A stretch of DNA of 64,000 nucleotides. It comes from Ignavibacteriota bacterium. GTDB taxonomy: Bacteria > Bacteroidota > Ignavibacteria > UBA10030 > SZUA-254. The stretch covers positions 124,001 through 188,000 of the forward strand of contig JANYJZ010000033.1 in the NCBI GenBank assembly GCA_025358305.1. Reading direction: 5' to 3'. The notes below the pieces were generated by a model, which had not been told where the DNA came from, did not search any database, and saw only the letters and a list, made by a program, of their open reading frames with translations. This document shows, one piece after another, positions 14,287 to 15,973 of the stretch; within the stretch, counting starts at the first letter, position 1; every line of letters begins with the position of its first letter. A program made the position numbers and the translations under genes.

Positions 14287-14747
14287 TTGCTCTTGCGCCG
14301 GGTCCGGCGTGCCGTTTCCGGCAGTATGGATTCGGTCAGCGAGAGTGCGACGCCGGAAAGCATGACCTCGGGGCCGAGCCGCGTGAAGTCGCCTGAAAGG
14401 AGCTCGCGGTCCACGTTCGCGTAGAGCGAGCAGCCGCCCTCCTTCTCTATAATAAGGCCTGCGAGCTTCCCCGCATCCTCCCCCACAAAGGTCACTTCGT
14501 TGAGCATCGAGCTCACGACGAATCCTGAGCAAAAGTGGAGCTGGAGGTGCGCGCTGGGCGTGTAGACGGAGACGAGGTTGCCCGTGCGCTTGCCGATGCG
14601 GATGTTCGGGTAGATCTCGAGGGTAAGCTTGCGCTGGGGGTCCGTTCCCTGGAGCTCGAAGCGCACGTTGTTTCCCTTGTGCTTCGGCGAAGCCTTGAGG
14701 ATCTTTCCCAGCTTCTTGAAATCGGTTTCTTTAAATGAGAAGGGCAT
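14283..14747 (-). CDS. Conserved-looking protein of unknown function, translationally coupled to ybeY
   Basis: 154-aa ORF MPFSFKETDFKKLGKILKASPKHKGNNVRFELQG...; stop overlaps the ybeY start; no family recognised. Confidence 0.7.
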   Translation of the reverse strand: MPFSFKETDFKKLGKILKASPKHKGNNVRFELQGTDPQRKLTLEIYPNIRIGKRTGNLVSVYTPSAHLQLHFCSGFVVSSMLNEVTFVGEDAGKLAGLIIEKEGGCSLYANVDRELLSGDFTRLGPEVMLSGVALSLTESILPETARRTRRKSK

Positions 14748-14781
14748 TCGTTCCTTGCAATTCTTGGGTCATGACCGTAAT

Positions 14782-14823
14782 AAAAAACCCCGGTGGCGGA
14801 CTTTTCTCAAGCCGGGCACGGGG
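14782..14823 (-). terminator. Intrinsic terminator-like hairpin plus T6 tail 35 nt upstream of the 14747 start codon
   Basis: Minus strand CCCCGTGCCCGGCTTGAGAAAAGTCCGCCACCGGGGTTTTTTATT: imperfect GC stem followed by six T. Confidence 0.6.
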
Positions 14824-15016
14824 AGCGTTGCATGGTGTCTCGAAGGGGATTCTCCTTATGACCGCACGACAGCATCGTGTTTCTCCGCCCCGCCGGCACA
14901 CACAACCATTCGCGGAGCAGCTCTACCGTCTCACCGCCAAACCTGCGCAATTCCATTCCATCCGGCGGATTCACCCCACATGAGGCCCTCTCAGACGCGC
15001 TCGTTTTCAAAATCGC
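14782..15016 (-). ncRNA. Candidate structured RNA, orphan sRNA or attenuator-type 5' leader
   Basis: Begins about 7 nt after a TTGACA-18-TATATT promoter; contains possible stems CCGCC/GGCGG, CTCCGC/GCGGAG, CACGA/TCGTG and AAGG/CCTT; ends at the T6 terminator. No match to rnpB, tmRNA or SRP signature motifs by eye. Confidence 0.45.
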
Positions 15017-15022
15017 TAGGCA

Positions 15023-15052
15023 AATATACAACCTGACCCCTATCAATGTCAA
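15023..15052 (-). promoter_or_regulatory. Sigma70-like promoter in the 15.0-kb intergenic region
   Basis: Minus strand TTGACA (15052-15047), 18 nt, TATATT (15028-15023). Confidence 0.7.
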
Positions 15053-15076
15053 GTGGCGGCCCGGACGCCCAGGCGT

Positions 15077-15973
15077 TCAGATCTCGAGCTCCATCCCTTC
15101 CATGGCGGCCGAGCACTCGAATTTGTAGGGATGGTGCCGGATCTCCTTCTTGCAGGTCTTGACGATCTCATCCATCTTCTCGTCGTTGTGGGAGGGGTCG
15201 TGATGGAACAGGACCAGGCGCTTCACTCTCCCTTCGGCGGCGACCTTGAGCGCGAAGAGGTAGTGGGAATGCCCCCAGCCGACGCGGTCCACGTACTCTT
15301 CCGGCGTGTACGTCGCGTCGTGGATGAGGACGTCGGCGTCCTTCACAAAATCGAAGATCCTCTTGTTCGGATCGCCGACGATCCGCGCGTACTTGTCGAT
15401 GATGGACTTTTCGACGTTCCGCATCGACTTTGCGACGCGCCGGTCGAACGGCTCGTTGTCGCTGATGTAGACGATGGATTTGCCCCGGTGCGTGATCCTG
15501 TACCCGAGGGCGAACGAGGGGTGGTTCACAAAGATGGTCTTCACGTGCGCGTCGAAGACGGTGAACTCCTCTTCGCCGATCCTCCGGAACTTGATGGAGG
15601 CTTTGAGCTCGTTGAGCTGGACCGGAAAGTAGACCTTGTTCATCTGGTCGCTGATCATCTTCTGGAGGGTCACCTTGTCCGTCTCGCCGCCGATGATCGT
15701 GAGGTCGTTGCCGGAGATGAACGCGGGCTTGAAGAACGGGAACCCCTGGATGTGGTCCCAGTGCGGATGGGAGATGAGGATGTAGGCCTTGATGGACTCG
15801 CCGTTCTCGATCAATGCCTCGCCGAGGTTCCGGATGCCGGTCCCCGCGTCGAGGATGATGAGTTGGTCCTTGGAAAGCCGGACCTCGATGCAGGGCGTAT
15901 TGCCGCCGTACCGAACGGTGTGCTTCCCCGGCGTCGAGATGGAACCGCGAGTACCCCAGAACTTCAGCCTCAT
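15077..15973 (-). CDS. MBL-fold metallohydrolase
   Basis: MRLKFWGTRGSISTPGKHTVRYGGNTPCIEV; HPHWDH metal motif; LIHDATYTPEEY, GWGHSHY. Confidence 0.88.
   Translation of the reverse strand: MRLKFWGTRGSISTPGKHTVRYGGNTPCIEVRLSKDQLIILDAGTGIRNLGEALIENGESIKAYILISHPHWDHIQGFPFFKPAFISGNDLTIIGGETDKVTLQKMISDQMNKVYFPVQLNELKASIKFRRIGEEEFTVFDAHVKTIFVNHPSFALGYRITHRGKSIVYISDNEPFDRRVAKSMRNVEKSIIDKYARIVGDPNKRIFDFVKDADVLIHDATYTPEEYVDRVGWGHSHYLFALKVAAEGRVKRLVLFHHDPSHNDEKMDEIVKTCKKEIRHHPYKFECSAAMEGMELEI

What the first reader, a model, noticed from the sequence alone, without database searches (positions are those of the whole stretch)
14747..15077. Promoter, structured RNA and terminator immediately before an unknown gene coupled to ybeY: orphan ncRNA or attenuator leader
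Seen: the 330-bp gap contains, on the minus strand, TTGACA-18-TATATT (15052-15023), then about 235 nt with several possible hairpins (CCGCC/GGCGG, CTCCGC/GCGGAG, CACGA-TGCTG-TCGTG, AAGG/CCTT), then a GC hairpin followed by TTTTTT (14823-14782) only 35 nt before the 14747 ATG. Inference: this is either a free-standing ~235-nt RNA or a conditional-termination leader controlling the unknown gene plus ybeY, an rRNA maturation factor. I saw no rnpB, tmRNA or SRP signature.
Basis: partly seen in the sequence, partly recalled or inferred. Interest (0 to 1): 0.8.

Follow-up and report, generated by a model that had tools for sequence, protein, structure and literature searches.

The report
Leader left by lost cold-shock gene
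The gap holds a real promoter and a real transcription stop signal, but in related bacteria the same two signals flank a small cold-shock gene that this genome has lost, so the RNA between them looks like a short leader that must be read through to express an unknown gene and ybeY, not a new structured RNA.

Summary
The promoter (15052-15023, minus strand) and the terminator (14823-14782) are real. TTGACA-N16-19-TATATT occurs 33 times in this genome against 0 for the reversed control. A terminator this strong arises in about 1% of shuffles. The "structured RNA" is not supported: there is no Rfam match, the RNA folds worse than shuffles (z = +2.05), and its body has no counterpart in 60 relatives. 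Syntenic Ignavibacteria/FCB loci explain the anatomy. Ancestrally the site reads MBL gene, promoter, cold-shock gene (csp), terminator, unknown gene, ybeY. The csp gene is present in 25 of 85 loci, reaching KSB1 and Calditrichota, and was probably lost repeatedly, including here. Promoter and terminator often survive csp loss (27 of 44 promoter-bearing csp-less loci). Hairpin-to-start spacing stays at 38±5 nt, while body length runs from 36 to 193 nt. About 34 nt separate the T-run from the ATG, with no promoter match there, so unk-ybeY messages should read through the terminator. Over 26 csp-less leaders I found no excess of antiterminator pairing, folding or leader ORFs. Best reading: a leaky-terminator leader left by a lost csp cassette, possibly tuned by Csp proteins (untested). 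In passing, a better RNA candidate turned up elsewhere in this genome.

The parts
15023..15052 (-). promoter TTGACA-18-TATATT(TG)
   Evidence: 33 against 0 genome control; same promoter at the same place in relatives, e.g. CTTGACATTGATAGGGGTCAGTAGTTATATTTGC in L006
14824..15016 (-). transcribed leader body, ~193 nt; no conserved sequence, no excess structure; sits where relatives carry the csp gene
   Evidence: no csp remnant by DNA alignment
14782..14823 (-). intrinsic terminator: hairpin 14823-14788 and T-run 14787-14782
   Evidence: conserved hairpin at the same distance from the start codon in relatives, pair changes kept in 7 of 13 pairs in the family alignment
14748..14781 (-). 34-nt spacer between terminator and start codon, with AAGGA ribosome-binding site and no promoter match
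14283..14747 (-). unk: 154-aa protein family of unknown function
   Evidence: 51 of 60 relatives, 2115 homologues, no Pfam or NCBIfam family, AlphaFold mean pLDDT 81 with no PDB fold match at E <= 0.001
13855..14283 (-). ybeY (rRNA maturation RNase)
   Evidence: PF02130, TIGR00043; downstream of unk in 65 of 85 loci
15077..15973 (-). upstream MBL-fold hydrolase gene that bounds the gap; synteny marker
   Evidence: PF12706; same position in 56 of 85 loci

Best explanation
This is the stub of a cold-shock-protein cassette working as a leaky-terminator leader. RNA polymerase starts at about 15016 from a housekeeping promoter. Most transcripts end at the terminator near 14782 as a ~235-nt RNA with no conserved content. 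A minority read through and form the unk-ybeY mRNA. Ancestrally the RNA ending at the terminator was the csp mRNA, so one promoter gave much Csp and little Unk/YbeY. In this lineage the csp gene was lost, while promoter, terminator and terminator-to-start spacing remained. Shown: promoter and terminator sequences, their synteny and persistence, csp in relatives, csp absence here, no promoter match after the terminator. Inferred: that both signals work as read, that unk-ybeY depends on readthrough, and that readthrough may rise when Csp proteins melt the hairpin, as described for E. coli Csps.
For: Same-family loci L005, L006, L008-L010, L012, L014 and L018 carry a full csp (PF00313) between the same promoter and the unk start, with the terminator recognised in all but L014; L007 keeps a 5'-truncated csp. 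csp is present in 25 of 85 loci including KSB1 and Calditrichota, and the tree needs 9 changes. The csp paralogues in this genome are only 33-58% identical to the same-family site type, which is 65-77% identical within itself, so the gene was lost, not moved. Promoter plus terminator remain in 27 of 44 promoter-bearing csp-less loci. In 26 analysed csp-less leaders the hairpin-to-start distance is 38±5 nt while body length runs 36-193 nt. No promoter match lies between 14900 and 14747. Of 28 same-type promoters examined in this genome, nearly all lead directly into a gene. Csp antitermination in E. coli is stated in PMC4956666 (citing Bae et al. 2000; Phadtare et al. 2002), and CspD overproduction raises readthrough at intrinsic terminators (PMC9765468).
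Against: There are no expression data. 17 csp-less loci with a promoter have no terminator recognised in the expected position, so it is dispensable in some lineages. Persistence could be slow decay in the window's own family, where the csp losses look recent. No DNA remnant of csp is detectable in the body, so the loss is inferred from synteny. The finer branches of the tree are weakly supported.
Confidence: 0.62

Rival explanations
1. Lineage-specific small RNA: after csp loss the ~235-nt transcript took on a trans-acting role, using the old promoter and terminator.
For: Strong promoter and terminator define a discrete RNA. Closest relatives of unk (90-95% identity) lie on contigs that could not be read, so conservation at short range is untested.
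Against: Folds worse than shuffles; no Rfam match; body absent from all 14 other family genomes. A structured RNA elsewhere in the same genome shows z = -2.56 and turns up in 11 of 15 family genomes, so the tests can detect one.
Confidence: 0.1
2. Classical attenuator: the leader folds into an antiterminator, or is translated as a leader peptide, in response to a signal and so switches unk-ybeY.
For: Terminator 34 nt before the gene; GCCGGCGGGG upstream could pair with the 5' arm of the terminator; an unsupported 49-aa ORF ends in the hairpin loop.
Against: Arm-occlusion z averages 0.03±0.16 over 26 csp-less leaders and is +0.84 for the window; SD-led ORFs in 3 of 26 leaders against 4.8 expected; the 49-aa ORF has no homologue.
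Confidence: 0.12
3. Plain decay: the csp terminator is a neutral leftover, and unk-ybeY is served by readthrough of no regulatory importance or by an unrecognised promoter.
For: csp and terminator losses recur across the tree; L011 and L024-L026 put the promoter directly in front of unk.
Against: The terminator stays at fixed spacing through a csp-less clade of 26 genomes in most members. No promoter match after the terminator.
Confidence: 0.16

Closest known systems
CspA-family antitermination in E. coli (Bae et al. 2000; Phadtare et al. 2002, cited in PMC4956666; CspD effects in PMC9765468)
   Same: Csp gene or Csp proteins, intrinsic terminators in front of downstream genes, readthrough as the possible control point
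   Different: Here csp itself stood before the terminator in the same transcript and has been lost from the window's genome; Csp action on this terminator is untested
Operon-internal leaky terminators that set gene ratios (general knowledge)
   Same: One promoter, partial terminator, lower expression of distal genes
   Different: The proximal gene is missing in the csp-less lineages, leaving only a leader of variable content
Riboswitch, T-box or leader-peptide attenuators
   Same: Promoter, leader, terminator just before the gene
   Different: No conserved aptamer, antiterminator or leader ORF

Membership tests
Transcription attenuator with alternative RNA structures | Terminator between promoter and first gene, with no other promoter for the gene | tested here: met
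   spacing conserved; absence of another promoter rests on a consensus scan only
Transcription attenuator with alternative RNA structures | Mutually exclusive antiterminator pairing | tested here: not met
   occlusion z mean 0.03±0.16 over 26 leaders, window +0.84
Transcription attenuator with alternative RNA structures | Leader peptide with ribosome-binding site | tested here: not met
   3 of 26 leaders against 4.8 expected by chance; window p = 0.66
Structured ncRNA (any Rfam family) | Match to a covariance model | tested here: not met
Structured ncRNA (new) | Folding better than shuffles and conserved covariation | tested here: not met
   z = +2.05; no body homologue in 60 relatives. Covariation of the body itself could not be tested because no alignable relative was reachable
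Cold-shock protein cassette | csp ORF (PF00313) between promoter and terminator | tested here: not met
   met in 25 of 85 syntenic loci, absent in the window, no DNA remnant
Csp-dependent antitermination | Readthrough rises when a Csp protein is present | not testable with these tools
   needs expression data; three csp paralogues exist elsewhere in the genome
6S RNA / rnpB | Match to RF00013 / RF00010 at this place | tested here: not met
   6S not found in this genome by RF00013; rnpB is on another contig

The most novel reading that the evidence does not exclude
A cold-shock regulatory circuit across the FCB group: the csp transcript ends at a terminator that Csp itself melts, so rising Csp turns on the downstream unk-ybeY ribosome-maturation operon, and csp-less lineages keep the terminator as a sensor of Csp proteins made elsewhere.
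Probability: 0.15. Interest if true: 0.65.

Novelty: new variant of a known kind. Interest (0 to 1): 0.36.

Why it matters
It turns an apparent orphan RNA into a readable piece of operon history: a cold-shock gene, its terminator, an uncharacterised FCB protein family and ybeY form an old gene set, and the terminator outlives the gene it once ended. If readthrough is Csp-dependent, it links cold shock to rRNA maturation in phyla where such regulation is little studied. It also gives a first context for the Unk family.

Tried and rejected
Rfam at gathering and E-value thresholds. Folding of both strands. csp remnant in the body by local DNA alignment against shuffles: none. Sequence relatives of the whole gap in 60 relatives and all 15 family genomes: only promoter-sized or chance pieces. 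The L003 hit overlaps the -10 region but is an unrelated place. Antiterminator and leader-peptide models. 49-aa ORF as a replacement small gene: no homologue. Solved-structure sequence search and fold search for Unk: no significant match. Two literature searches did not turn up this csp-unk-ybeY arrangement among the papers listed.

Full report
Observation. The gap 14748-15076 lies between an MBL-fold hydrolase gene and a 154-aa gene (unk) followed by ybeY, all on the minus strand. The promoter TTGACA-18-TATATT at 15052-15023 is exactly as described. The same pattern occurs 33 times in the 3.2-Mb genome and never in the reversed control, and a match of at least 11/12 arises in 5 of 2000 shuffles of the gap. 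The terminator is a hairpin of about -15 kcal/mol followed by six T; 21 of 2000 shuffles give one as strong. In the 64-kb window few other hairpins are followed by a comparable run of T. The RNA between them is not specially structured: -76.8 kcal/mol against -86.0±4.5 in shuffles, z = +2.05. Rfam finds nothing.

Comparison with relatives. The genome belongs to an Ignavibacteria/Bacteroidota clade known mostly from metagenome assemblies. Unk was found in 51 of 60 relatives and in 73 named loci. After removing duplicates, 85 loci were compared. In most loci of the window's family the interval holds promoter, a ~69-codon cold-shock gene (PF00313) and terminator, then unk and ybeY. The window keeps the promoter and the terminator but has no csp. 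L007 has a csp lacking its first half. L015 lost csp but kept both signals. L011 lost csp and terminator. csp also stands before unk in KSB1 and Calditrichota loci, so the arrangement is old; the gene tree needs nine changes (weak support on inner branches; the tree itself cannot tell gain from loss). The window's genome has three other csp genes, only 33-58% identical to the same-family site type, so the gene was lost rather than moved. No csp remnant is detectable in the body.

What is conserved. In a clade of 26 genomes with no csp at this site most members still have promoter and terminator. Over 26 csp-less leaders the hairpin ends 38±5 nt before the unk start, while the body runs from 36 to 193 nt. 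Bodies align only between near relatives. The terminator keeps its pairing through sequence change within the family: 7 of 13 pairs have at least one double change, although the covariation term is small, -0.33 kcal/mol.

Mechanism. With 34 nt between T-run and ATG, and no promoter match there, unk-ybeY transcripts should cross the terminator. That is the core inference: the terminator is a leaky valve. In csp-bearing relatives it would give much csp message and little unk-ybeY; in csp-less genomes it leaves a short leader RNA. Tests for a classical switch failed: antiterminator occlusion z 0.03±0.16, body folding z 0.20±0.23, SD-led leader ORFs 3 of 26 against 4.8 expected. E. coli Csps can prevent hairpins that terminate transcription (PMC4956666, citing Bae et al. 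2000 and Phadtare et al. 2002), and CspD overproduction raises readthrough at intrinsic terminators (PMC9765468), so a Csp-tuned valve is plausible but untested.

Positive control and side finding. Another canonical promoter in the genome (L128/L148, G000:C15:45605-45825) leads to a ~200-nt RNA with z = -2.56. A model built from four sequences finds it in 11 of 15 family genomes, with a long, well-conserved helix GUUAAAGGUU/AACCUUUGAC, variable apical hairpins and a terminator. It has no Rfam match. This shows what a real RNA looks like under the same tests, and the window's RNA does not look like it.

Unk. No Pfam or NCBIfam family. The AlphaFold model from 40 sequences has mean pLDDT 81, with no solved fold at E <= 0.001. 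Its function remains unknown; its neighbours suggest RNA or ribosome metabolism (inference).

Limits. No expression data; MAG assemblies; nearest relatives (Unk 90-95% identical) could not be read at the DNA level.

Noticed in passing
L128/L148 (G000:C15:45605-45825, minus), relatives L150, L152-L160, L162: Unassigned ~200-nt structured RNA with its own TTGACA-17-TATATT promoter, helix GUUAAAGGUU/AACCUUUGAC, variable apical hairpins and a terminator; in 11 of 15 family genomes, no Rfam match. The AACCUUUGAC strand resembles a -35/-33 box, so a 6S-like role is conceivable (RF00013 finds no 6S in this genome), but this is untested.
   Followed up: partly
window 14283-14747: Unk: uncharacterised protein family of Ignavibacteria, KSB1, Calditrichota and Marinimicrobia, usually next to ybeY; invariant residues include L17, E44, G52, G56, Q69, L70, C73, G97, E101, V112, G119, D120, P126.
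   Followed up: partly
L007, directly behind the promoter (G012): A csp gene lacking its first half directly behind the retained promoter: an intermediate stage of csp loss, or an assembly fault in the MAG.
   Followed up: no
L108-L110 (G000:C33 and C25): Three other csp genes in the genome; two have long 5' leaders sharing CAACAGTACACCGTT near the start, a possible cold-box-like element.
   Followed up: no
whole genome G000: 29 of 33 promoter-pattern hits lie on the reverse strand of their contigs, an odd strand bias that may only reflect how contigs were oriented.
   Followed up: no
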